A stretch of DNA of 41,854 nt from contig JAAYWZ010000141.1 of NCBI GenBank assembly GCA_012516175.1, forward strand, positions 1 through 41,854, given 5' to 3'. Both the position numbers and the translations under genes were made by a program. Source of the DNA: Bacilli bacterium. Its GTDB lineage: Bacteria; Bacillota_I; Bacilli_A; Haloplasmatales; Haloplasmataceae. Under the pieces are notes generated by a model, which saw nothing but the letters and a program-made list of their open reading frames with translations, had not been told where the DNA came from and searched no databases. Within the stretch, counting starts at the first letter, position 1. Every line of letters begins with the position of its first letter. This document shows, in pieces, positions 3 through 41,113 of the stretch.

Positions 3-443
3 ATTAACTGGGAAGTAGAAATTAATGAAGATTATGGTGTTATTCATTTAAATAATTTGAGTAACATTAACCGCTTAAACTTAAATCTAAATGAAAGTAT
101 TCTATTACTACTTCTTAGACAAATATATCAAGAAAAATTAAAAGAGGTATCTTTAACACAAAACATCTTAATTAACATTGAAGAGTTAAAGGTGCGTTAT
201 GACAGCTTAAAAATTCGTGATAAGCAATTAGATAAAACCACTTTAAGGAATACGATTAGACTCTTTAAACGCTACAATCTAATTGAACCACTTGATAGCG
301 ATTATGCCTTAGGTGATACGAGAATCATCATTTATCCAACGATTTTAATGGCTATTAAAGTAGATGATATTATGAAAATTAGTGAAAAACTTGATAGTTA
401 CCGTCTTGGGGGTGGAGAAGATGAAGAAACTGATGAGGCTTAA
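3..443 (+). CDS. jetB: JetB, MukE-like subunit of Wadjet defence complex (5' partial)
   Basis: The frame is open from the left window edge, so the true start lies upstream; 146 codons plus stop are visible. The fragment has a leucine-rich stretch (NLNESILLLLLRQIYQEK) and a C-terminal winged-helix-like part with 'TLRNTIRLFKRYNLIE', typical of the DUF4194/JetB family. These proteins are the kite (MukE/MksE-like) subunit that bridges the kleisin JetA and the SMC-like ATPase JetC. The last 23 bases overlap jetC, indicating translational coupling. jetA is expected just left of the window, following the usual jetA-B-C-D order. The family call rests on motif resemblance plus the unmistakable jetC downstream. 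Confidence 0.85.
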   Translation: MNWEVEINEDYGVIHLNNLSNINRLNLNLNESILLLLLRQIYQEKLKEVSLTQNILINIEELKVRYDSLKIRDKQLDKTTLRNTIRLFKRYNLIEPLDSDYALGDTRIIIYPTILMAIKVDDIMKISEKLDSYRLGGGEDEETDEA

Positions 444-3400
444 GCTCATTAATTGGCATTACTTTATCAATGAAACAATTATATTCGAAGGTAATACCCT
501 CATAACTGGTGAAAATGGTGCCGGTAAATCCACTATTCTCGATGCCATGCTTTATGTCTTAACGGCAGGTAAACAACAATTTAATAGTGCTGCGAATGAA
601 AAGACGAAACGGGATTTAATTGGTTATGTGCGTTGTAAAACGGGGCATGATGCTAATCAATATCTCCGTAGTGGTGATGTCACTAGTCACATCGCTTTAG
701 AATTCTTAGATGAAAAGAAAAACAATTATTTTATTGTTGGGGTTGTGATTGATTCATCAAGTGATTTATCAACACCTAAAACGCTATTTTATCGGATTGA
801 GAATAAGAGAATCGATGATAACTTATTCTTTAAAGATAGTAAACATCCCCGGGAAATCAATAATTTTAAAGTGAAACTAAAAGAATATGATTTTAGAATC
901 TTGGACACTTTGAGTAAAGCTCGGCATGATTACCTTCATAGATTTGGACAATTAAATGAACGATTTACGCTTTTACTACCAAAAGCATTAGCTTTCCGTC
1001 CCATTAATAATGTCAAAGATTTTGTTTATGATTATCTTCTTGAAAAGAAAGAAGTAGAAATTGAATACTTAAAACAAAATATTAATACTTTAAAAGAGTT
1101 TGAACTACATTTAGAAAGAGTTAAACTGCAACTAAATGATTTGGAGAAAATTGATAACATTTATCAGGAATACCTTCAACTAGATAATAACATCAATATT
1201 CAGGAATATATCATTAGACGAGCCCTAGTTGAACAGAATCAAGAAAAGACTCATCTAAAGAATAATGAGCTGAATAAAGTCATTATCGATATCGAAGCAA
1301 TTAGTCAAAAACTAAATTCAATTAAACTAAAAATTGAAGAGAATCAGGACTTTCTAAATAAAATTAGGATATCCTTGCTCAATAATGAAACATTTAAATT
1401 AGTACAAGATTTAGAAAACAAGATTAGAGATATTGAAATCCAACTTAGTAATCTCGAAGCGAAAAAGCATAAATTAATTGAGAAACTTAATAGTAGTTTT
1501 GAAATCATTAGCGAGTTATCAGCTAAGAATTTAAATATAAATAGTTTAGCTAAATACTATGAATTTAAGAATCAAAAAATCACAAGAGAAAATATTACGG
1601 AGTTTAGATTAATCACTAATGATTTATCACAAGAGATTAAAACCTTTCGTAACAGTATATCAGAAAAGAAGGGGTTGTTAAAGAATCAAATTGAAACTGT
1701 AAGAACTAATCTCCAAGAAGTTAGATGTGAGATTACAGAGTTAAATAAACAACGTCTGATTTATCCTCCGTATGTTACTAACTTACAGAGAGAAATCAGA
1801 AATCAATTATCAAAACGTTATGGTAGTAATATTGAACCAAAGATATTCTGTGAACTAATTGATATTAAAGATGAGTTATGGCGAAATGCGATTGAAGGTT
1901 ATTTAAATACGCAAAGGTTTAGTCTATTTGTTGAACCTGAATACTTTGATGCAGCCCTAGAAGTATATGAACGAGTTAAGTTTGCGCTAAATATCCATAC
2001 AGTAGGTTTAGTTAATACAAAACAACTAGATGAATATCATGATATTAATCCTGATAGTTTAGCTTATATGATATCTACTGAGCACCATTATGCTAGGTTA
2101 TATGCGAATATGTTACTCAATAGAGTAATAAGATGTGAGGAAGTTCTCGATATACAGAAGTATAACATCGCAATTACGCCAACCTGTATGGTTTACCAGA
2201 ATAAAACCGCAAGACAAATTAAGAAGGATGTCTATGAACAACCTTTTATTGGAAAAGAAGCATATAAAGTCCAACTTCAAAAGAAAGAACAAGAAGAACA
2301 ACTTCTCCTTCAAGAGTTAACAGATTTAGCGAACCAACTTAACCAACTCGATACTTTGTATACTTTATGTGATAGTTTGGATTTAAGTTATGTTTATGAA
2401 AACTGTGATTTATTCATAACGATTGCTGAATATAAACTTAGGAAAAAAGCATATGAACAAAAATTGCAGGAAATCGATCGTAGCTCTTACTTAGATTTGC
2501 AATTAAAGATTAGTAGTACTGAACAAGAAATTAAAGATTTACAGAAAGATAAAGATAATCAAGAAAGTATACGTAATGAGTATAATGTCAGTAAACGGGT
2601 TTTAACTGATGAGATCAATAGACTACAAATGGAATACTTAAACTTAACTGCGAATCTACGGGAAATCTCCCTAAAGTTAAACCATTTATTAGCGGAAGCT
2701 GATAAACGTTATCAAAGTAGTATTGACCGTTATAAACGAGATTACCAGAAGATTATCGAAGTCTTTACATCGCAAAAGAAAGGTCTAGAAACGCAAATTT
2801 ATAATAAACTGAGTGAATTGAAGGAAGCACAATGGGAATATAATCGCGATTATGATTTTAGTGCCGAAGCAGGACTTGCGGGTATGGAAACCTATTATCG
2901 TGAAGCTAGACTTTTAAGAGACAGTAAAGTTATTGAGTATGAAGAAAAGATCCGAGATGCAAAACGTAAAGCTGAGGAACAGTTTAAAGATGAGTTTATT
3001 TCGAAATTACAAGAATATATTTATACCGCCCAAAGAGAATTTACAAAATTAAATGAGGCTTTAAATGGGATTCGTTTTGGGAATGATGAATACCGTTTTA
3101 AATGGGATATCAGTAAAACTAAACAGAAGTTTTATAAAATGATTATGGACCGCTCTAATATTGGTGGTAATACACTCTTTTCAGATACTTTTAGAAATCA
3201 ACACAAAGAAGCGTTAGATGAGTTATTCGATCGGATTAGTATAAGTGATGATGAATCGCAAAAAGCCTTAGAAGAATACACTGATTATCGCTCTTATATG
3301 GATTACGATATCCAAATTATCCACAATAACAACAACACTTCTTCTTATAATCAAGTCGGTCGAGAGAAGAGTGGGGGAGAAACCCAAACACCTTTCTATG

Positions 3401-3666
3401 TTGCGATTGCGGCGAGTTTCATCCAATTATACCATAGCAATGCTTATGAAGACTCAATCGGGTTAATTATGTTTGATGAAGCCTTTGATAAGATGGATGA
3501 TAATCGGATTGAAAGCATGATGACATTCTTCAATCGACTAAACTTACAGATTATCCTAGCGGCGCCCCCACAAAAGATTGAGACAATAAGTCCATTTATC
3601 AAAACAACACTCATGGTCTATCATTATGATAATGCTTCTTATGTGGAGTTGTTTCAACATGAGTGA
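421..3666 (+). CDS. jetC: JetC, SMC/MukB-like ATPase of the Wadjet system
   Basis: 1081 residues if started at the ATG at 421, which lies just after GGTGGAGAAG; a GTG at 382 is less likely. The N-terminal head has the Walker A motif GENGAGKST (residues 30-38). Long E/K/L-rich coiled-coil arms cover roughly 220-480 and 640-900, with a hinge-like non-coiled segment near 480-600. The C-terminal head has the signature-like REKSGGETQTPF and the Walker B motif GLIMFDEAFDKMD. This is the SMC-family motor that, with JetA and JetB, extrudes loops on small circular DNA so that JetD can cleave it. The frame is intact with every ATPase motif present. Its 3' end overlaps jetD by 8 bases (ATGAGTGA). Confidence 0.93.
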   Translation: MKKLMRLKLINWHYFINETIIFEGNTLITGENGAGKSTILDAMLYVLTAGKQQFNSAANEKTKRDLIGYVRCKTGHDANQYLRSGDVTSHIALEFLDEKKNNYFIVGVVIDSSSDLSTPKTLFYRIENKRIDDNLFFKDSKHPREINNFKVKLKEYDFRILDTLSKARHDYLHRFGQLNERFTLLLPKALAFRPINNVKDFVYDYLLEKKEVEIEYLKQNINTLKEFELHLERVKLQLNDLEKIDNIYQEYLQLDNNINIQEYIIRRALVEQNQEKTHLKNNELNKVIIDIEAISQKLNSIKLKIEENQDFLNKIRISLLNNETFKLVQDLENKIRDIEIQLSNLEAKKHKLIEKLNSSFEIISELSAKNLNINSLAKYYEFKNQKITRENITEFRLITNDLSQEIKTFRNSISEKKGLLKNQIETVRTNLQEVRCEITELNKQRLIYPPYVTNLQREIRNQLSKRYGSNIEPKIFCELIDIKDELWRNAIEGYLNTQRFSLFVEPEYFDAALEVYERVKFALNIHTVGLVNTKQLDEYHDINPDSLAYMISTEHHYARLYANMLLNRVIRCEEVLDIQKYNIAITPTCMVYQNKTARQIKKDVYEQPFIGKEAYKVQLQKKEQEEQLLLQELTDLANQLNQLDTLYTLCDSLDLSYVYENCDLFITIAEYKLRKKAYEQKLQEIDRSSYLDLQLKISSTEQEIKDLQKDKDNQESIRNEYNVSKRVLTDEINRLQMEYLNLTANLREISLKLNHLLAEADKRYQSSIDRYKRDYQKIIEVFTSQKKGLETQIYNKLSELKEAQWEYNRDYDFSAEAGLAGMETYYREARLLRDSKVIEYEEKIRDAKRKAEEQFKDEFISKLQEYIYTAQREFTKLNEALNGIRFGNDEYRFKWDISKTKQKFYKMIMDRSNIGGNTLFSDTFRNQHKEALDELFDRISISDDESQKALEEYTDYRSYMDYDIQIIHNNNNTSSYNQVGREKSGGETQTPFYVAIAASFIQLYHSNAYEDSIGLIMFDEAFDKMDDNRIESMMTFFNRLNLQIILAAPPQKIETISPFIKTTLMVYHYDNASYVELFQHE

Positions 3667-4864
3667 TTATAGAAAATATATATTAACTAAACTCCTTGAT
3701 AAGTATGAAAAAAGTAAAGTCTTTCGGGGGGAAAATCTAGTAAACCGCAAGATAGATTTTAAATTCAATCTTGATACTTTAAAAGACTACTATCATCCTA
3801 CTAATGTAGAATTAAAACTTGAAATTAATGAAGTATGTAAGAACTTAGAAAAAGAAGGGTTAATCTTCATTCACTGGCAAAAGTATGAAGAAGGGAATAT
3901 AATTGAGCGGATTCAGTTAAATATTGATAATGTCGATATTATATATAAAGAATTAAAGCGAACGAGCAAAATAGAATTAGAAAGGCAAATGATTAACTTC
4001 CTAAAACAGTATGAAAACCATCCTACCTGGATAAGTGAGTTTGTAAGGTACCTGATTAATCGTCTTGAAAAAGGAGAAAGCATTGATAAGTACTTTAGCC
4101 TTAATGATCAAAAATTGGCACAAGACATCTTTATAGCACTAGAAGCAATCCTTAAGCAAGAGATAGAAATACCAAAAAGACTATTTAGTATAAAATTATT
4201 TAATCAATCTAAATATTTTGAAACAATTGAGCACAAGATTATTAGTATTATGAAGTAATTCGGACCTTATGGTTTAGACGCAAACTACTTAGCAGAAGAA
4301 AACATCATTGATAATCCTGGCTATGTATATTTAAAGGGTACAGGTATCTTTAAATGCGGGGAACAGTTTCTTGATTTAAGTAAATTAACTGGTGATGTTG
4401 GTTTAAGTACTAACCTACTAAAAAATATCGAAATTATCAAATTAGATGTTAGCAGAATAATTACGATTGAGAATTTGACTAGTTTTCATACCTATACACC
4501 TCAAAATGAATTGGTTATATATTTAGGTGGTTATCATAATAAGTTAATAAGAAGCTTCTTAAAAATGTTACATGAGTTTAATCCTCATCTAATCTTTTAT
4601 CATTGGGGTGATCTTGATTTAGGTGGCTTTCGGATTTTACATCACTTGAGAAGTCAGACTGGCGTACCATTTAAACCATTGTATATGGATTTAAATACCT
4701 TAAAATATTATGAGGATTATGCGATGCCAATCAATAAAGAGCATGAAAAGCAGTTAATAGAGTTATTAGGTAAGGAAGAGTACCAAGAATTTCGTGATGT
4801 TATTCAATACATGGTAGATAAAAAAATACGTCTTGAACAGGAAATCGTTGGTTTTGATAAGTAA
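3659..4864 (+). pseudogene. jetD: JetD, Toprim nuclease of Wadjet, interrupted by one in-frame TAA
   Basis: The start ATG overlaps the jetC stop. Codons 1-199 are open, codon 200 is TAA (4256-4258), and the same frame then stays open for 201 more codons to the TAA at 4862. Joined, the product is about 400 residues, the normal JetD size. The first half corresponds to the N-terminal DUF3322-type arm. The second half is the DUF2220/topoisomerase VI A-like Toprim domain. It keeps the Toprim glutamate (E271 in TIENLTSF) and the DxD pair (D318, D320 in YHWGDLDLGGF). No ATG, GTG or TTG lies in frame between the stop and the TTG at 4475, and a restart there would lose E271. Unless the stop is read through or is a sequencing error, the nuclease is lost. 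Confidence 0.88.
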
Positions 4865-5038
4865 ATGATATCCCCTAATCTAATATTATAGTCATTTTAG
4901 CGAAATATCTGTATAATCAATATATTGGATAACATATAATGCTAATTAACTCATATTGAAGTACCTAATACAAAGCAAGAACCAGTTAAGTTAAGTATAC
5001 TTGACATCGAGTAACTGTTTATGCTCGATTATTTCAAA

Positions 5039-5076
5039 GATATCACCTTTTCAAGTTAAGGTGATATCTTTTTTTT
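5039..5076 (+). terminator. Rho-independent terminator after the Wadjet operon
   Basis: A perfect 11-bp stem, GATATCACCTT (5039-5049) with AAGGTGATATC (5058-5068), has an 8-base loop and is followed by eight T. The flanking AAA upstream would extend pairing into the T-run. Confidence 0.9.
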
Positions 5077-19533: not shown

Positions 19534-21420
19534 ATGGAAATTTTAGTTAAACGTTATCTAGAAAGTATCTTTAGAGAACGATTAACGCTTAACGTTGAAG
19601 ATGAATTAACTAAGAAAGCTCGCAATCTTTTAGATAAATTACAAGAAGCTAAAGATCACACCCTTTTCTGGTCAGATGTTTCCTTAGAACAACCAGATTT
19701 ATCTGGATGGAAAACTCTAATGCATATGCAAAGAATAATTGATATTATTTATTACCTTGGGCTTAAGCACTTAAGGGAAGAAGTTGATACGAGAGAAAAG
19801 ATTTTACGTGCTTTAACTTGGTGGACCAATCATGATTTTATTCATCCGAATTGGTGGTGGAATGAAATTGGTTTACCACAGCGGTTAGCGCGTATTGCCA
19901 TTCCTTTAAATGAATATATAAAAGGTGATTTACGCGAAGGTGTCTTAAGGATTTTCCGCCGCGGTTCGATGAGTCATAATCAAAGAATCGAATATCAATG
20001 GGGAGGAGCTAATCTCACCTGGGGTGTGTGGGGCACAATTTATTATGCGATGTTTGAAAATGATACGGAGTTATTAAAGCGTGCTGTTAATCGCTTCGCA
20101 AGAGAAATCTATATCGCTCATGGTGATGTGGAAGGCATAAAGGAAGATTATAGTTTTCATCAACATGGTGCGATGTTACAGTCTGGTGGTTATGGTCGTG
20201 CTTTTTGTGAAGCGGTGAGCGACCTCGTAGTCCTTCTTACTGATACACCATATCAACTACCCCAAGAGAAAATTGATTTATTCTGTGATTTTGTTTTATA
20301 TGGACAACGTTATTTTACTCATATAGATGGACAAGATTACCTAACAGTAGGAAGAGAAATCTCGCGGCGGGGTATCCCAAAAAGCAATTTAAGGGAAGTT
20401 GTGGAAAAACTCTTAAGAACGAAGGAAGTAACGAAGAAAGCGGAATTACAAGCTTATTATGATAGTTTACAAAGAAAAGAAAATACCCTCATTGATACGA
20501 GATATTTTCCTGATTCCCTCACTCTAACTCATCATCGCAAAGGTTTTTATATGTCCGCTAAGGGAAGTAATACAAAGATTATGGGTACAGAGTGCGCAAA
20601 CTTTGAGAATTATCTAGCATATAACCATTTCTTTGGTTCTTGTACGTGTTATATGGCTAGTGGTGAGGAGTATTATGAAATAAATCCTTTATGGGATCAT
20701 TGTTTCTATCCTGGAACAACTGCTTATGTAGAAACTGATACTGAACTCTTAGAACATACCTCAAGTTATCAATCATGGTTTAGAATCCCTGGTACTAATG
20801 ATCATTGTGGTGGTTTAAGTGATGGTAAATTTGGGGCAATGTATCAGTTAATGACTCATGATGGTTTAGAAGTTTATATGAGTTTTATCACTTTTGATTT
20901 AGGGATGATAGTCTTAGGAACTGGTTTAACAGCAAATAATGAAAAAGCAGTTGTAAGTACCATTGATCAATGTTTCTTAAAAGATCACAATTATAATGGT
21001 AAACCACTCGCAAATGAGATGTTAATTACAGATAAAAAGCCAATTATTAATGGTGGCTTTGCTTATTATAATCTTTGTGACAAACCATTACATTTATTTG
21101 CGGGTAAAGTGACTGGTAACTGGAATCGCAATAATCGCTCTTATGGAGACATAGAGGTTCAAGGTGAAGTTTTCAAATTATGGTACAACCACGGCGTTAA
21201 ACCACAAGAGGAAAGTTTTGCTTATGCGGTAATTGGTAAAACCGCTAACTTACCTGACGATTCTAAGGGATTACCTATAAAAAAGATTATAAATACTAAA
21301 GAAATCCAAGGTGTTGAATTGAATGATGGTCATGCTATATTAGTTTTCCATAAACCAGGTCGTTATGAGACGACGCATGGTAAAGTAATATCTTCGTCGC
21401 AAGGTGTAGTTATCTTTTAA
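19534..21420 (+). CDS. Polysaccharide lyase family 8 protein without signal peptide
   Basis: 628 residues, ATG behind AAAAGGAGA. The N-terminal half is the PL8 alpha/alpha toroid with NWWWNEIGLPQRL (106-118), GGANLTWG (catalytic Asn160), DYSFHQHG (catalytic His211) and SGGYG (catalytic Tyr220). The His-to-Tyr spacing of nine matches hyaluronate lyases. The C-terminal half is the beta-sandwich region. Family members cleave hyaluronan, chondroitin or xanthan by beta-elimination and are usually secreted proteins of 700-1000 residues. This one is shorter and starts without a hydrophobic signal, so it seems cytoplasmic and may act on imported oligosaccharides. No unsaturated-uronyl hydrolase or sugar transporter is adjacent, so the substrate remains open. 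Confidence 0.85.
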   Translation: MEILVKRYLESIFRERLTLNVEDELTKKARNLLDKLQEAKDHTLFWSDVSLEQPDLSGWKTLMHMQRIIDIIYYLGLKHLREEVDTREKILRALTWWTNHDFIHPNWWWNEIGLPQRLARIAIPLNEYIKGDLREGVLRIFRRGSMSHNQRIEYQWGGANLTWGVWGTIYYAMFENDTELLKRAVNRFAREIYIAHGDVEGIKEDYSFHQHGAMLQSGGYGRAFCEAVSDLVVLLTDTPYQLPQEKIDLFCDFVLYGQRYFTHIDGQDYLTVGREISRRGIPKSNLREVVEKLLRTKEVTKKAELQAYYDSLQRKENTLIDTRYFPDSLTLTHHRKGFYMSAKGSNTKIMGTECANFENYLAYNHFFGSCTCYMASGEEYYEINPLWDHCFYPGTTAYVETDTELLEHTSSYQSWFRIPGTNDHCGGLSDGKFGAMYQLMTHDGLEVYMSFITFDLGMIVLGTGLTANNEKAVVSTIDQCFLKDHNYNGKPLANEMLITDKKPIINGGFAYYNLCDKPLHLFAGKVTGNWNRNNRSYGDIEVQGEVFKLWYNHGVKPQEESFAYAVIGKTANLPDDSKGLPIKKIINTKEIQGVELNDGHAILVFHKPGRYETTHGKVISSSQGVVIF

Positions 21421-33328: not shown

Positions 33329-36300
33329 TTGGAACAATTGGATTTTAATCTGTATATAAATATCGTACTCGGAGTAATATTTGGTTTTGCGGTATTATTA
33401 GGGTTTATGCGTGGTTTCAAAAAATCGGTATATTGGTTAATAGTCATGGTAATTTACTATACCTTTTTTTTCTTAACTCTCGATTTAGTAGTTAATGCTA
33501 TTTATACCTACTATACACCACAATTAGGAGATATATTAGGTGGTTATTTACCTGAGTTGAGTGAAGTAGTTACTCTAAAGGATGCTTTAGAGACTCTGAT
33601 TGAATCCAGAGTACCTGATGAATATGTTAGTATTCTAACCAGAGACGATGTGCGGGTATTAATTGGTTCAGTTGGATTATTTGTCTTGAAAATTATTTAT
33701 ACTATTTTTTACTTTACAGTTCTAAAATTTCTCTATAAGTTTATTTGTTGGATTATTCGTTTAATTTTTATTAGAGTTAATAAAGATGCTCCAAAAAGAC
33801 GTTTATTAGGTGGTTTTGTTGGTGCTATTAGAGGTGCAATGGCAGTCTATATTTTCTTCATTTTTGTTGGTGGCTTAATTAATATTGCCGAAAATGTTTA
33901 TAAAGTTGCACCAGAAGACGTCAAGATGGATGAGGTGGATCAATTTCTCGAAGCATATAATAATAACATCTTTGTTCAGGGGTTGGATTATGTACCTAGT
34001 ATTGATAAAGATACCCCCATGCATTTTTACCTATTCGATAAAATCTTCTCCCTCGATGTAGAATACGAAATTAAACCACTACCACCACAAGAGCAAACTT
34101 TAGTATTTTTAAGCAATGGGTACCATCCACCATTAAAAATTATTAATCAGAATGCACAAGGAGTTATAAAAGTTGATGTTCAAATAGCCTTCCGTAAGGA
34201 AATTGCGATTTTTGCATCTGTTTATGAATACTATATTAATTCTGATTATTATAAATCAAATAATTTAAATCAAATTACTGGTGATGATATCCGTACTGTT
34301 TCTGGCATTATCAGTAATTCAGATTTAATCAATACTATTATACCAATAGCGATTGAAGCTGGTATGGAGTATTTTGAAACCGAAATTACTATCCCTCGGG
34401 AAGAATTATACGAAATCCATTGGAAACAAGAACTACTCATTTTAGGAGATTTAGCAGCTACTACATTTGATTTAATTAATATGGCTGGTTTGCTAGATTC
34501 CGAACAAGAACTAGAAACGATACCATTTACTGGTGAAGATGTACAGCAAATCTTTGATGGTTTAGCAGAAAGTGAGTTAGTAACCTTTGCGGCTTATGTT
34601 GCTTTAGAGCCACTCCTTAAGCAAATTGGTGGTGAAGTCCAAGCGATAATTACTGTACCAAAAGACATTGATTGGAAAACGGAATTCAGAGCTATTGGTG
34701 CAATAATCGCAGCAATTATTGATACCGATATTACAGTATCAGAACTTCGTAATCCTGAACCAACCCAATTAATTCAACGATTATCAAAACTGGACTTTAC
34801 GATTATTCTTAATTCTAAAATCATAAAAGGTGCCTTAATAAATATTTTCTCAGGCAAGGTTCAAATCGAAGGACTTGATCAAATCGTTATTACTGAGCAA
34901 GTTAATTGGGATGAAGAACTTCAAAACATCCTTCAAGCAGTAAACATGATTGCGGCGAAAGTGGATAAAATAGATTTTAATAATTTAACCTTAAAGGTAC
35001 TCGCAGAATTTGATGAGGAAACCATTGATAAGATCTTTTCATCTAAGATCTTAATCGCCACGATAACAAAATTTATTAATGAGATGGATTTTGGTGAAAC
35101 ACCTGTAATCCTCTCTAATACCGTCTATGATGAAGATGGCTATATTAAGAAGAGTGAGTTAACTAGTGTAGTTAATACCTTCAAAATGTTAATTGAACAA
35201 TTACCTTGTGATGAACAAGATCAAACCTGTACAGAACTTGGATTTAATTATAAAGGAATTCTTACATTAAATGATAATCATGTTAAGCAATTACTATCTT
35301 CAACTATTATTACAGAAACAGTAGGGTACATGTTACTTCAACAAGCAGGTGATATGTTAACAGTACCGGATAGTGTCAAAGATAAAGTTGTAGTAAATGA
35401 AGAAGAGTTAGAAGTAATCGTTAAGGAAGAATTAGAAAGACTCTTTAATGCGATAATCATTTTCTCATTTAAAAATATTGAAAACATTAGTTTTGATGAA
35501 ACATTAATTAACCAATTAGCCCTTGAAAATGAAGATGGTAGTAAAAAATTGGACCCTGAAAAGAGTAGTAAACTCTTTGGTCCTGAGAGCTCAGTAATTA
35601 TTCATGCATCCTTATCGAAAATGATTTTAGATGTGGCAAAGGAAGAAAATAGTCCACTGATAGTTCCTTATTTTGACGTAGATAATAAACCGATTAGAAT
35701 CGTAGGAGAAGATGGATTAGAGTATATTGCAAAGTCAGAACTGGAAAATATCCTGAATGCTTTAATCGTCATTGATATGACAGATTTTAATGATGTAGAA
35801 AATATTAGTATTCAAACCTTATTAGCTAATACTAATACCTTGTTACAATCTGCAATTATTCACGCTACTGTATCAGATCAAATCATTAAGCAAGAAAGTG
35901 AAGATATTATTATTCCTTTATCTGTAAGAGTAAATGTTGGAGAAACAGATAAAAGTACAGTTTACGTTAAGAAAGTAGAGATCGAGAATATCGTTCAAAC
36001 CTTAGATATCCTCGATGTTGAAAATCTTGATAATTTTACTGGTGATTTTACCCTCACAAATCTTTATGAAAGCGAAGAAGATCGTGAAACAGTGCTTTCT
36101 TCTGAGATTCTTCATGCTACAATTTCTAAACAGATTGTTAAAATTAGAAAAACATCAGATGAAGATGCTTCAGGAATTGTTGTACCTGATTCATTATTAA
36201 AAGAAGTAGAAGAAACAGAACTTGAAAGAACAATTACTTTGGTTAAGAAAACAGAAATTGATGCCGTTATTCAAGCATTTGGCGTATTAAAGATTAATAA

Positions 36301-39300
36301 TGTCAATGAGTTTGATGGTAAGGTAAATCTCAATGATTTAGCTAAAAGGCCAGAAGAACAACAAAAACTCTTTAACTCAGTTATCGTCCATGCTACAGTT
36401 TCAGACCAAGTCCTTAAACTTCATAGGGATGGTAATATTGTCGTCCCAAGTGTAGATGAGACTGAAAAAGCAGTCATTACTATTGATGAAGAGGATAATT
36501 TTGAATATATCGATAAAGAAGAAATCTATACTATCATTGATGCTTTAGTTATCCTTGGTTTTAGTGATGTTGAAAGCTATGATGGAAAAGTTAATCTAGA
36601 TATTCTTAAAGGTGAACAAAACCCAGATAAGGATGATGTCTTAAAATCAGCTATCATCAGAGCTACAATTTCTCGCGAAATCATCAAACTTACTGATGAT
36701 GGTACGATTGTTGTACCCATTGATGATGAAGAAGGTAATGAAATTAAACACATTGTCGATGGAGATATAGCACTAATAGATCGGGATGAAATAGCTATAT
36801 TAATTGACGCAGTGACCATTTTTATCGAACCTAATGAAAATAATGAATATCTCATTGATAATTTTAGTGGGAAAGTTAATATAAGAAAGTTAACTAGAGA
36901 AAATAGTGAAAATAAGGACACGATTTTAAGTTCAGCAATTATCAGGGCGACTATCTCTGATAAGATACTTGACCTTGATGAAGGAAGTAAGGAGATTTTA
37001 GTCCCAATTAAAGATGAGACAGGTAAAGAGATCGTTAAGCCAGTTAAAGGAGTACGATTCATCATCCGTGAGGAAATCTCAACACTGATTGATGCCCTAG
37101 CTATTTTTGGTGAAGATGATATTGAAAACTTCTCAGGGACAGTTGATTTAAGCAAATTAACTGATGAAGAAAATATATATGATGACATCACAGATAAAGA
37201 ATTAATATTAAGTTCAGCAATACTTCGGGCAACTGTATCACGTGAACTAATTAACCTTGATTCTAATGGTACCATTGTTGTACCTGAAGTAGATGAAGAA
37301 GAAAAAGTCGTTATTATTTCTGTTGATGAAACTGATAGAATAGTTAATTTTGTCAAGCATAATGAATTATCCATCCTTATTGATGCATCCACGATATTAG
37401 GATTTACCGATGTCCAAAATTATAATGGTAAAGTAGATTTAATTAAATTATTCGGTGATGAAAACCCTGATAAGGAGACAGTATTAAGTTCAGCGATTTT
37501 ACGTGCTACAATCTCTAAAGAAATTGTCAAGTTACATGATAATGGTGATATTGTTGTTCCGAATGTAGATGTAGATGGACGTTATATTCATAAAGTTATC
37601 AATAGCAATGATTTCATTTCTCGCGATGAAATAAGCGAGTTAATCGACGCATTAGTAATCCTAGGATTTAGTGATGTTGAAACCTATGAGGGTAGAGTTG
37701 AACTAGGAAAACTTGCAGGGGAAGAAAATCCTGATAAAGAAGATGTTTTAGATTCAGCTATCATAAGAGCTACAATTTCCCGTGAGATTAACGCGCTTAC
37801 GACAATTGTTGTACCAGCTGTAGATGATGATAGCAAAACAATTAAGAGATTAGTCGGCGAAGTTACCTTCATTGATCGTTCAGAAATTTCTGTTTTAATC
37901 GATTCGGTTGTCATCTTTATGAATCCCGATGAAAATGGTAACTATTATATCGATAATTTCACAGGAGCTATTGATTTAACCAAGCTTACAGGTGCTAATA
38001 GTGCAAATAAGACAACAGTACTTAGCTCCGCAATTATTCGTGCTACCATTTCTGATAAAATTGTTGAACTTAATGGTGATGAAATCGTCGTACCTCTGAA
38101 GGATGACCAAGACCATAGTAATAAAGTTATCAAGAGAACCATTGAAGGCGTTGACTTTATCGATAAGAATGAAATCTCTACTTTAATTGATGCCCTAGTT
38201 ATTCTGGGATTTGCGGATGTCGATAATTACACTGGTAATGTTGATTTAAGCAAATTAACAGATAATGATAATCTCTATGACGATAGAACAGATAAGGAAG
38301 TCATATTAAACTCTGCAATTTTACGTGCAACTATTTCCCGGGAGATTATCAAGCTTAATGGTGCAGATATTGTTGTACCACGTAAAGATGAAAGTGGTAA
38401 TAGCATTATTAACACCGTTAACGAAGGCGATAAAGCAATTGATTTCGTCAAGAAAAATGAAATCTCCACCTTAATCGATGCTTTAGTTATCTTAGGCTCC
38501 AATGATGTAGAAAATTATGATGGTAATGTCGATTTAGGAAAACTTAAGGGTGACGATAATCCTGATAAACAAACAGTCTTAGACTCAACAATACTAAGGG
38601 CAACTATCTCTAAGAAGATTACTGAGTTATCAGGTGAAGATATTGAAATACCTGATATTGATGTTGATGACAAAGAAATAAGAATTACCGTTCCAGGTGA
38701 AACTGCTGAGTATATCGATCGTGATGAAATCTCTATATTAATTGATTCTATCGTAATTTTCATTGAACCTAATGAAGAAGGCGAATATCATATTAATAAT
38801 TTTACTGGTGATATTGATTTAAACAAATTAACTGGTGCTAATAGCGCTAATAAGACAACAGTATTAAAATCCGCTATTATTAGAGCTACAATATCAAACA
38901 AAATTATAGAATTAGCCACTAATGGACACATTGTTGTACCTAACATAGATCTAACTGATCGGGAAATCATTATTAATAAAGGTACAATAGACTTCATAAT
39001 TAAGGATGAAATCTCAGCCTTAATCGATGCTCTAGATGTATTAGGAATTTATAATATCGATTCTTATGAGGGTCAAGTGGATTTACATAAATTAACAGGA
39101 GATAATGAAGGAAATCAAGATATTATCTTAGGTTCAGTGATTATCCATGCGACCATTTCTAACCAAATCATTGGTCTTCACAATGATAATGATATCATTG
39201 TACCAAGCAAGGATTGGGAAAACAAAGACATCATCTTACCAGTTGATGGCGTTGGTTTCATCAGAATTGATGAAGTTAAGAATATTATCAATGCTTTACC

Positions 39301-41113
39301 AATCCTCAACATCTACGATGTCACATCATTTGCTGGTACAGTTGAATTGGATTATCTCTTTAATAGTACAATTAACCAAGACAAATTACTAAAATCCGCT
39401 ATTATCCATGCATCCATATCTAAACAATTATTAAATATAAGTGATGATCCAGACACAGAATTAGAAGTACCTAAATATAAAGATGATGAAGAAGAAACAG
39501 AAATTATTATTGAAGTAAATACAGATAGTGGATTAGTCAAATTTGTTGAAAAAGAAGAAATCAAAGCACTCATCAACGTATTAGATGTGCTTGGATTACA
39601 TGACATTAAACATTTCTCAGGAAATGTCGCTTTAACTGACTTCTATAATAATGAAACTAATCAAAATAAACTTCTAGCTTCAGCAACTGTTCATCGCACT
39701 ATTTCTAAGCAAATGTTGACTAATAGTGATTTCCTAGTACCTGAAAAAGATATTAATGATAATCCTATTCGTAAGACTGTTCAAGGTATTCAATATGTTG
39801 AAAAAGATGAAATTAAAGCATTAATCAATGCACTAGAATTATTAAATGTTACAGATGTTTCAACGTTTGAGGATAGCTTTACTTTAGATCAACTAAGTAA
39901 TGATACTAATAAAGAAAGACTCTTAAGTTCTGCTACTATTCATGCAACGCTTTCGAACGAGTTATTTGAATTAGCTGCAGATGGTATCATTGTTGTTCCG
40001 AATAAATCCGTTGAAAATGTGAAAATCCAAAAGACTGTGCAAGGTACAAACTTTATCGTCAAGGATGAATTGATGCAAGTTATTGATGCCTTAATTAAGA
40101 TGGATTATACAAGTATTGGTACAATTGGCAATAATATTAACTCACAAAGATTCTTCGATAATCGTAGTATCCTCGACTCAGCTATAATTCATGCTACAAT
40201 ATCATATAAACTACTTAATGAAACGCATGATTACTTAATTATACCAGATGAATACTATGGAACTAGTGAGCCAATTCGCATTATGGTTGAGGGTGTAACA
40301 TTTGTTGATATTGATGAAATCAATAATATTTTAAATGCGTTAGACGCCTTAAATCTTAAAGACTTTAGTAATATTGACTTAGAACCACAAAATGTCTTCG
40401 AAGTCGACTTCAATATACTTCTCAATTCAGCCTCAATCCAGGCTACTCTATCAAGAGAAATCCTCGCTAATGCGGAAGATGAAAATGCTCCAGTTGGTCA
40501 AGAAGTATTGATCATACCACAATACTATCGTCAAGCTAACTTGAGTGCTGGTACTAATACCTTCACCCAAATTGAAAAAACCGAATTACAAAGACTATTA
40601 GATGCTCTAAAATCATTAAGTATTAGTGAATTCAATGGTATTGTAGATGCTCAAGAAATCACCTATAACATTACACGCACTACTTTAGAAACTAAGTTAT
40701 TAGTAAGTGGTTCCATCCATGTGACTATCGATAGAATGTTGAAAGGTAATGATTATATCAGTAATAAAATTCCAGATAAAGCTCTAGAAGAAAACGAACT
40801 ATATGGTATTGCTGATTTAGTTAAAACAACAGAAATTACTAACTTCATTCTTGCTGCTAAGGAAGTTGAAGCTAATGACTTCATTGAAGCAGAATTCACA
40901 TTTACCCAATTACAAATATTAAATGAAGAAAAAGTAGATATTATCTTAGATTCCATGATTGTCCGTAATTCGATAACTATTGAAATACGTGACATCGTTG
41001 GAGATTACCTCTTCTATTATTACTTCGATGATGTAGACTTTGAAGACGGAGATCCTTCAACATTCTTGACTGAAGCGGCAATTAAACATGCTATCAGTAA
41101 CTTACCAATTTAA
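33329..41113 (+). CDS. Giant CvpA-headed repeat protein (2594 aa), predicted cell-surface
   Basis: The TTG start is nine bases after AAGGGGG; the nearer ATG at 33321 is out of frame. Residues 1-190 hold four hydrophobic helices (about 8-28, 34-58, 110-145, 165-186) with CvpA-like loops, MRGFKKSVY after helix 1 and KDAPKRRLLGGFVGAIRG before helix 4. Basic residues sit only in these two loops, so the positive-inside rule puts both termini outside. From about residue 490 to the end the chain is a tandem array of about 23 repeats of 82-96 residues. The core reads LSSAIIRATISREI, IVVP, FIDRDEIS and LIDALVILG. The region is strongly acidic and almost Cys-free, with no LPXTG motif or signal peptide. 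A shared bidirectional terminator follows. I recognise no described family for the repeat. Confidence 0.85.
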   Translation: MEQLDFNLYINIVLGVIFGFAVLLGFMRGFKKSVYWLIVMVIYYTFFFLTLDLVVNAIYTYYTPQLGDILGGYLPELSEVVTLKDALETLIESRVPDEYVSILTRDDVRVLIGSVGLFVLKIIYTIFYFTVLKFLYKFICWIIRLIFIRVNKDAPKRRLLGGFVGAIRGAMAVYIFFIFVGGLINIAENVYKVAPEDVKMDEVDQFLEAYNNNIFVQGLDYVPSIDKDTPMHFYLFDKIFSLDVEYEIKPLPPQEQTLVFLSNGYHPPLKIINQNAQGVIKVDVQIAFRKEIAIFASVYEYYINSDYYKSNNLNQITGDDIRTVSGIISNSDLINTIIPIAIEAGMEYFETEITIPREELYEIHWKQELLILGDLAATTFDLINMAGLLDSEQELETIPFTGEDVQQIFDGLAESELVTFAAYVALEPLLKQIGGEVQAIITVPKDIDWKTEFRAIGAIIAAIIDTDITVSELRNPEPTQLIQRLSKLDFTIILNSKIIKGALINIFSGKVQIEGLDQIVITEQVNWDEELQNILQAVNMIAAKVDKIDFNNLTLKVLAEFDEETIDKIFSSKILIATITKFINEMDFGETPVILSNTVYDEDGYIKKSELTSVVNTFKMLIEQLPCDEQDQTCTELGFNYKGILTLNDNHVKQLLSSTIITETVGYMLLQQAGDMLTVPDSVKDKVVVNEEELEVIVKEELERLFNAIIIFSFKNIENISFDETLINQLALENEDGSKKLDPEKSSKLFGPESSVIIHASLSKMILDVAKEENSPLIVPYFDVDNKPIRIVGEDGLEYIAKSELENILNALIVIDMTDFNDVENISIQTLLANTNTLLQSAIIHATVSDQIIKQESEDIIIPLSVRVNVGETDKSTVYVKKVEIENIVQTLDILDVENLDNFTGDFTLTNLYESEEDRETVLSSEILHATISKQIVKIRKTSDEDASGIVVPDSLLKEVEETELERTITLVKKTEIDAVIQAFGVLKINNVNEFDGKVNLNDLAKRPEEQQKLFNSVIVHATVSDQVLKLHRDGNIVVPSVDETEKAVITIDEEDNFEYIDKEEIYTIIDALVILGFSDVESYDGKVNLDILKGEQNPDKDDVLKSAIIRATISREIIKLTDDGTIVVPIDDEEGNEIKHIVDGDIALIDRDEIAILIDAVTIFIEPNENNEYLIDNFSGKVNIRKLTRENSENKDTILSSAIIRATISDKILDLDEGSKEILVPIKDETGKEIVKPVKGVRFIIREEISTLIDALAIFGEDDIENFSGTVDLSKLTDEENIYDDITDKELILSSAILRATVSRELINLDSNGTIVVPEVDEEEKVVIISVDETDRIVNFVKHNELSILIDASTILGFTDVQNYNGKVDLIKLFGDENPDKETVLSSAILRATISKEIVKLHDNGDIVVPNVDVDGRYIHKVINSNDFISRDEISELIDALVILGFSDVETYEGRVELGKLAGEENPDKEDVLDSAIIRATISREINALTTIVVPAVDDDSKTIKRLVGEVTFIDRSEISVLIDSVVIFMNPDENGNYYIDNFTGAIDLTKLTGANSANKTTVLSSAIIRATISDKIVELNGDEIVVPLKDDQDHSNKVIKRTIEGVDFIDKNEISTLIDALVILGFADVDNYTGNVDLSKLTDNDNLYDDRTDKEVILNSAILRATISREIIKLNGADIVVPRKDESGNSIINTVNEGDKAIDFVKKNEISTLIDALVILGSNDVENYDGNVDLGKLKGDDNPDKQTVLDSTILRATISKKITELSGEDIEIPDIDVDDKEIRITVPGETAEYIDRDEISILIDSIVIFIEPNEEGEYHINNFTGDIDLNKLTGANSANKTTVLKSAIIRATISNKIIELATNGHIVVPNIDLTDREIIINKGTIDFIIKDEISALIDALDVLGIYNIDSYEGQVDLHKLTGDNEGNQDIILGSVIIHATISNQIIGLHNDNDIIVPSKDWENKDIILPVDGVGFIRIDEVKNIINALPILNIYDVTSFAGTVELDYLFNSTINQDKLLKSAIIHASISKQLLNISDDPDTELEVPKYKDDEEETEIIIEVNTDSGLVKFVEKEEIKALINVLDVLGLHDIKHFSGNVALTDFYNNETNQNKLLASATVHRTISKQMLTNSDFLVPEKDINDNPIRKTVQGIQYVEKDEIKALINALELLNVTDVSTFEDSFTLDQLSNDTNKERLLSSATIHATLSNELFELAADGIIVVPNKSVENVKIQKTVQGTNFIVKDELMQVIDALIKMDYTSIGTIGNNINSQRFFDNRSILDSAIIHATISYKLLNETHDYLIIPDEYYGTSEPIRIMVEGVTFVDIDEINNILNALDALNLKDFSNIDLEPQNVFEVDFNILLNSASIQATLSREILANAEDENAPVGQEVLIIPQYYRQANLSAGTNTFTQIEKTELQRLLDALKSLSISEFNGIVDAQEITYNITRTTLETKLLVSGSIHVTIDRMLKGNDYISNKIPDKALEENELYGIADLVKTTEITNFILAAKEVEANDFIEAEFTFTQLQILNEEKVDIILDSMIVRNSITIEIRDIVGDYLFYYYFDDVDFEDGDPSTFLTEAAIKHAISNLPI
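34795..41110 (+). repeat. Protein-level tandem repeat array, about 23 units of about 270 bases
   Basis: Boundaries are approximate. Units are defined by the recurrent S-A-I-I-x-A-T-I-S segment, for example near 36373, 36646, 36931, 37207, 37485, 37756 and 38023. Units between about 36370 and 39130 are most alike, and both ends of the array are diverged. Synonymous codons differ freely between copies: ATISRE is encoded differently near 36665, 37770 and 38330. So the array is old and conserved at protein level, not a recent slippage product. Some units carry an insert such as EPNENNEY or NPDENGNY, which recurs every three to four units. Confidence 0.85.

What the first reader, a model, noticed from the sequence alone, without database searches (positions are those of the whole stretch)
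4256..4258. Wadjet nuclease gene jetD carries a single in-frame TAA while jetC and the visible part of jetB stay intact
Seen: codon 200 of jetD is TAA, yet the same frame continues for 201 sense codons with the Toprim residues E271, D318 and D320 preserved. The absence of further decay means the lesion is very recent, is read through, or is a sequencing error. JetD is the cleaving subunit of this anti-plasmid system. A loader without its nuclease would extrude DNA without cutting, which could be a tolerated 'disarmed' state or a way out of self-damage or plasmid exclusion.
Basis: partly seen in the sequence, partly recalled or inferred. Interest (0 to 1): 0.75.

Follow-up and report, generated by a model that had tools for sequence, protein, structure and literature searches.

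The report
Plasmid-defence nuclease gene with premature stop
In one uncultured bacterium's draft genome, the DNA-cutting gene of an otherwise ordinary plasmid-defence system (Wadjet) is cut short by a single premature stop, most likely a recent loss or a draft-genome error, since the same draft carries similar lone stops in unrelated genes.

Summary
In detail: codon 200 of jetD (3659-4864) is TAA (4256-4258), and the frame stays open for 201 more codons, keeping E271, D318 and D320. The operon is type I Wadjet. The window is a whole contig of a fragmented draft of the Haloplasmataceae, starting inside jetB. jetA was not found, but the sampled contigs under 3 kb read as N, so its absence shows nothing. 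A same-genus genome has an intact jetABCD (JetD 70% identical; Glu at codon 200).

Readthrough is unlikely: TAA ends 132 of 205 long frames sampled, no UAA-reading tRNA was found, and relatives differ in the residue at the three stops compared. Reinitiation cannot restore the nuclease: the first in-frame start (TTG, codon 273) lies past E271. The lesion is young: neutral drift beyond about 0.08-0.10 changes per site would have added stops. It is not special: 381 kb of the draft holds two more lone in-frame TAAs in genes intact in the same-genus genome. Hence an ordinary recent nonsense lesion, or a consensus or strain artefact; reads would decide.

More interesting in passing: three relatives carry a second, intact jetABC operon without jetD, beside a complete one.

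The parts
3..443 (+). jetB, 3' part (146 codons); 5' end lies beyond the contig start
   Evidence: PADLOC JetB1 PDLC00479 6.3e-52, Pfam DUF4194; 90% identical to same-genus JetB residues 58-203
421..3666 (+). jetC, SMC-like ATPase, 1081 aa, intact (GENGAGKST Walker A, KSGGE signature, LIMFDEA Walker B)
   Evidence: PADLOC JetC1 PDLC00519 E=0 over 1-1080; sequence
3659..4258 (+). jetD up to the premature stop: 199 codons, N-terminal (CAP-type) half; its start overlaps the end of jetC by 8 bases
   Evidence: PADLOC JetD1 PDLC00533 positions 1-200; translation
4256..4258 (+). in-frame TAA at codon 200; relatives have Glu (two) or Asp (two) here
4259..4864 (+). jetD 3' remnant: 201 open codons with the Toprim domain (E271, D318, D320 kept); no in-frame ATG/GTG/TTG before TTG 4475 (codon 273)
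   Evidence: PADLOC JetD1 PDLC00533 positions 210-406, Pfam JetD_C; start scan
5036..5071 (+). intrinsic-terminator-like hairpin downstream of jetD
   Evidence: consensus scan, 1 found against 0.4 expected

Best explanation
This is an ordinary type I Wadjet operon (jetABCD order, as in the same-genus relative) in a Haloplasmataceae draft genome. Its last gene, jetD, carries a recent nonsense change. Translation would yield a 199-residue CAP-type fragment and no Toprim nuclease, so the system should not cut plasmids. The rest of jetD looks intact because the change is young, not because it is translated. The change is most likely a neutral or mildly favoured loss of one defence function, one of several lone nonsense lesions in this draft. 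Shown: the stop, the intact relatives, the lack of a usable restart, the youth bound, the other lesions. Inferred: loss of cleavage in the cell, and that the base is real in the organism.
For:: one gene split by one TAA; intact JetD in four relatives, Glu or Asp at codon 200; the first in-frame start after the stop is TTG at codon 273, past E271; in the homologous MksG, E236A or D279A drastically impairs nuclease activity, and deleting mksG affects plasmid stability as deleting mksB or mksF does (PMC10123090); all four Jet subunits are needed (PMC10586767); 95% bound of about 0.08-0.10 neutral changes per site since inactivation, against dS about 1.7 between the two congeners, so roughly the last tenth of the lineage; two more clean lone stops in 381 kb. 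TAA is the usual stop and no UAA-reading tRNA was found.
Against: The base call cannot be checked; in a metagenome-type assembly it may be an error or a minor strain allele. Constraint relaxation in the 3' half is only hinted at: 10 changes against 3 in the congener at 92 columns fixed in three outgroups, p = 0.09, and 6 against 1 at 49 columns at least 75% conserved.
Confidence: 0.6

Rival explanations
1. The TAA is a consensus error or a minor strain allele in a draft metagenome-type assembly; the living population carries an intact jetD and a working Wadjet system.
For: The assembly is broken into 207 contigs and the window starts inside jetB. The 3' half keeps every residue invariant among 12 other JetD1 proteins. 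Several lone stops without frameshifts occur in the sample. The close relative is labelled a MAG.
Against: Three stops in 381 kb from errors alone would need about 1.5e-4 substitution errors per base (my estimate from the 113/1809 stop-neighbour fraction), high for a short-read consensus. A nonsense-lesion rate near 1% of frames is ordinary for bacteria (own knowledge).
Confidence: 0.3
2. A selected 'disarmed' state: the JetABC motor is kept as a condensin-like loop extruder while the nuclease is dropped, for instance to tolerate a plasmid or avoid self-damage.
For: jetC and visible jetB are intact. Three family members carry a second, intact jetABC operon without jetD, and P. [quoted passage not shown] Real Wadjet losses raise plasmid uptake (PMC12287153).
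Against: No sign of selection: the lesion is young, comparable stops lie in unrelated genes, jetA is not seen, and no other clear JetD1 gene in the phylum sample has an internal stop.
Confidence: 0.07
3. The stop is read through, or the second half is translated separately, giving a working JetD.
For: The downstream frame is open and conserved.
Against: No UAA-reading tRNA among those found (the set is incomplete); TAA ends 132 of 205 long frames; congener residues at the three clean stops differ (Glu, Leu, Glu); a restart at codon 273 loses E271.
Confidence: 0.03

Closest known systems
Type I Wadjet (JetABCD / MksBEFG / EptABCD)
   Same: Gene order jetB-jetC-jetD, overlapping genes, JetB1, JetC1 and JetD1 matches; Toprim acidic residues kept in the remnant
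   Different: jetD is interrupted at codon 200; jetA is not seen in the assembly as held
MksBEF condensins without nuclease (P. aeruginosa)
   Same: If jetA is present, the locus would encode a motor without a nuclease, the state reviewers suggest arose from JetABCD by losing JetD (PMC10586767)
   Different: Here a near-intact jetD is still in place, so this is at most the first step and not an established MksBEF system
Natural and laboratory Wadjet losses (M. smegmatis mc2 155 eptC mutation; C. cellulovorans jetABCD deletion)
   Same: Loss of one Wadjet function in a single lineage
   Different: Those hit the SMC gene or the whole operon and have a measured effect on plasmid uptake; this one hits jetD and has no phenotype data

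Membership tests
Type I Wadjet (JetABCD) | JetC SMC-like ATPase with Walker A, signature and Walker B | tested here: met
   PDLC00519 E=0 over the full length; motifs read in the sequence
Type I Wadjet (JetABCD) | JetB (DUF4194, KITE subunit) | tested here: met
   PDLC00479 6.3e-52 on the 146 visible codons; the 5' end is off the contig
Type I Wadjet (JetABCD) | JetA kleisin | tested here: inconclusive
   Not found in the own genome, found in four relatives with the same query; the nine sampled contigs under 3 kb read all N
Type I Wadjet (JetABCD) | JetD with CAP and Toprim domains in one open frame | tested here: not met
   The gene is present but interrupted by TAA at codon 200
Type I Wadjet (JetABCD) | Cuts small circular plasmids | not testable with these tools
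   Needs a bench assay
MksBEF condensin without nuclease | Kleisin-KITE-SMC operon with no nuclease gene | tested here: not met
   A nearly intact jetD still follows jetC
Stop-codon reassignment or programmed readthrough | UAA-reading tRNA, or one common replaced residue at several stops | tested here: not met
   No such tRNA found, tRNA set incomplete; congener residues are Glu, Leu and Glu at three stops

The most novel reading that the evidence does not exclude
The locus is caught in the first step of turning a plasmid-cutting Wadjet into a nuclease-free, condensin-like motor, a change that this bacterial family seems already to have made in other copies: three relatives keep an intact second jetABC operon without jetD, in two tree positions (weakly supported).
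Probability: 0.07. Interest if true: 0.6.

Novelty: new member of a known kind. Interest (0 to 1): 0.2.

Why it matters
By itself a single young nonsense lesion in one draft genome matters little: it shows how easily a defence system can lose its cutting arm and warns that gene-presence tools would call this operon Wadjet from fragments. If reads confirmed it across strains, it would be a natural motor without nuclease, useful for asking what JetABC does to DNA when it cannot cut. The jetD-less jetABC operons of relatives are the better material for that question.

Tried and rejected
Genetic-code change or suppressor tRNA: rejected as unlikely. Split-gene or reinitiation model: rejected because no usable start precedes E271. 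True absence of jetA: not claimed, because nine sampled contigs under 3 kb are withheld as N. A first scan counted those N stretches as open frames and was redone. JetA Pfam PF18982 rang in no genome including controls and was discarded as uninformative. 'Stops inside' reported for JetA in G004 and a GH3 gene on C201 were the genes' own terminal stops. First scan of named genomes with the single protein found nothing; the alignment query named three relatives. Sequence search of solved structures gave only a weak MksG match; the fold search placed the model with topoisomerase VI A subunits and Spo11, as expected for JetD, with poor overall superposition (TM 0.3-0.4), probably because the linker is uncertain. 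Metagenome reads or contigs could not be searched.

Full report
What is there. The window is the whole of contig C111 (41,854 bases) of a 2.26 Mb genome in 207 contigs, estimated 99% complete. Two named records with the lengths of relatives' contigs are Haloplasmataceae / Haloplasma MAGs, and the same-genus contig is a 'Bacilli bacterium' MAG. The contig starts inside jetB (3-443), followed by jetC (421-3666) and jetD (3659-4864), with overlapping gene ends and a terminator-like hairpin at 5036-5071. PADLOC models give JetB1, JetC1 and JetD1.

The lesion. Codon 200 of jetD is TAA at 4256-4258, followed by 201 sense codons. The two halves match positions 1-200 and 210-406 of the same JetD1 model, so one gene is interrupted once. 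In the same-genus genome jetABCD is complete and JetD is 70% identical with Glu at this position; a second relative has Glu and two have Asp. E271, D318 and D320 are kept. In the homologous MksG, E236A and D279A drastically impaired nuclease activity (PMC10123090); the equivalence of these residues to E271 and the D318/D320 pair is my inference from the Toprim motif.

What it would do. A read-through model (pLDDT 79) puts residue 200 at the end of a helix, before a poorly predicted stretch (204-220) and the Toprim half. The product would be the N-terminal CAP-type half alone. After the stop the first in-frame ATG/GTG/TTG is TTG at 4475, codon 273, which lies past E271. So neither half nor a restart gives a working nuclease. 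All four subunits are required for plasmid suppression (PMC10586767).

Readthrough. The tRNAs found in the genome include no UAA reader, though the set is incomplete. TAA ends 132 of 205 long frames in the sample. At the three clean stops compared, the congener has Glu, Leu and Glu. Nothing suggests recoding.

How old. If the 3' half were drifting freely, about 30-38 new stops per substitution per site are expected, so the absence of any gives a 95% bound of about 0.08-0.10 changes per site. The two congeners differ by dS about 1.7 in this half, about 0.84 per lineage, so the lesion falls in roughly the last tenth of the lineage. Relative-rate counts hint at relaxed constraint but do not show it: 10 changes in the window lineage against 3 in the congener at 92 columns, p = 0.09; jetC gives 16 against 10. 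No residue invariant in 12 other JetD1 proteins is changed.

Is it special? No. In 381 kb of non-withheld sequence (17% of the draft), a scan for lone in-frame stops with no nearby start found jetD, a GH3 glycosidase gene on C100, an unnamed gene on C19, and a TAG in a degraded carbohydrate-binding gene on C60; three weaker candidates were not followed. The GH3 and C19 genes are open in the congener. In a sample of 392 genomes of the phylum, 14 have a JetD1 match over 100 bits and only this one has an internal stop, so recurrent disarming is not seen.

What cannot be decided. Errors alone would need about 1.5e-4 substitutions per base to give three such stops (estimate), which is high but not impossible for a thinly covered or mixed-strain assembly. 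jetA and the start of jetB are not in the held assembly, but all nine sampled contigs shorter than 3 kb read as N, so the loader may well be complete. No plasmid search was made.

A side finding of more interest. In G002, G004 and G006, three genera of the same family, a second jetA-jetB-jetC operon is intact, with JetC Walker and signature motifs, but no JetD within the flanks read; the same profile finds JetD in the first operon of each genome. The JetC proteins of these copies are 34-38% identical to the complete systems' JetC. A tree of the JetC C-terminal part needs two changes of state, with one origin not ruled out. This matches the published view that MksBEF of P. aeruginosa likely arose from JetABCD by losing JetD (PMC10586767), and shows that a nuclease-free JetABC is kept in this family.

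Verdict. The most likely account is an ordinary, recent nonsense lesion (0.6) or a draft-genome artefact or strain allele (0.3).

Noticed in passing
L020:2779-8064 (G006), L021:2046-7222 (G002), L123:1662-6701 (G004): Second, intact jetABC operons without jetD in three genera of the same family, each beside a complete jetABCD elsewhere in the genome; two positions in the JetC tree, weakly supported. Candidate condensin-like systems derived from Wadjet.
   Followed up: partly
L069:547 (G000 contig C100): Lone in-frame TAA in a full-length GH3 glycosidase gene whose same-genus homologue (63% identical) and own-genome paralogue (62%) are open.
   Followed up: yes
L083:12974 (G000 contig C19): Lone in-frame TAA in a 255-codon gene without Pfam match, open in the congener (77% identical) and in G005 (50%).
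   Followed up: yes
L065:457 (G000 contig C60): In-frame TAG in a degraded carbohydrate-binding / Ig-like surface protein gene.
   Followed up: partly
L056, L057, L060, L070, L073, L087, L088, L090, L092: All nine sampled contigs of the draft shorter than 3 kb are given as N throughout, so absence of a gene from this draft cannot be shown.
   Followed up: yes
window 33329-41113: One 2594-residue protein of many similar repeats of roughly 100 residues (recurring 'SAIIRATIS...VVP...' units) behind an N-terminal part that looks membrane-spanning; only a weak Pfam match.
   Followed up: no
window 19534-21420: Polysaccharide lyase family 8 gene (hyaluronate/chondroitin lyase-like) between a Rex-like regulator gene and groES/groEL.
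   Followed up: no
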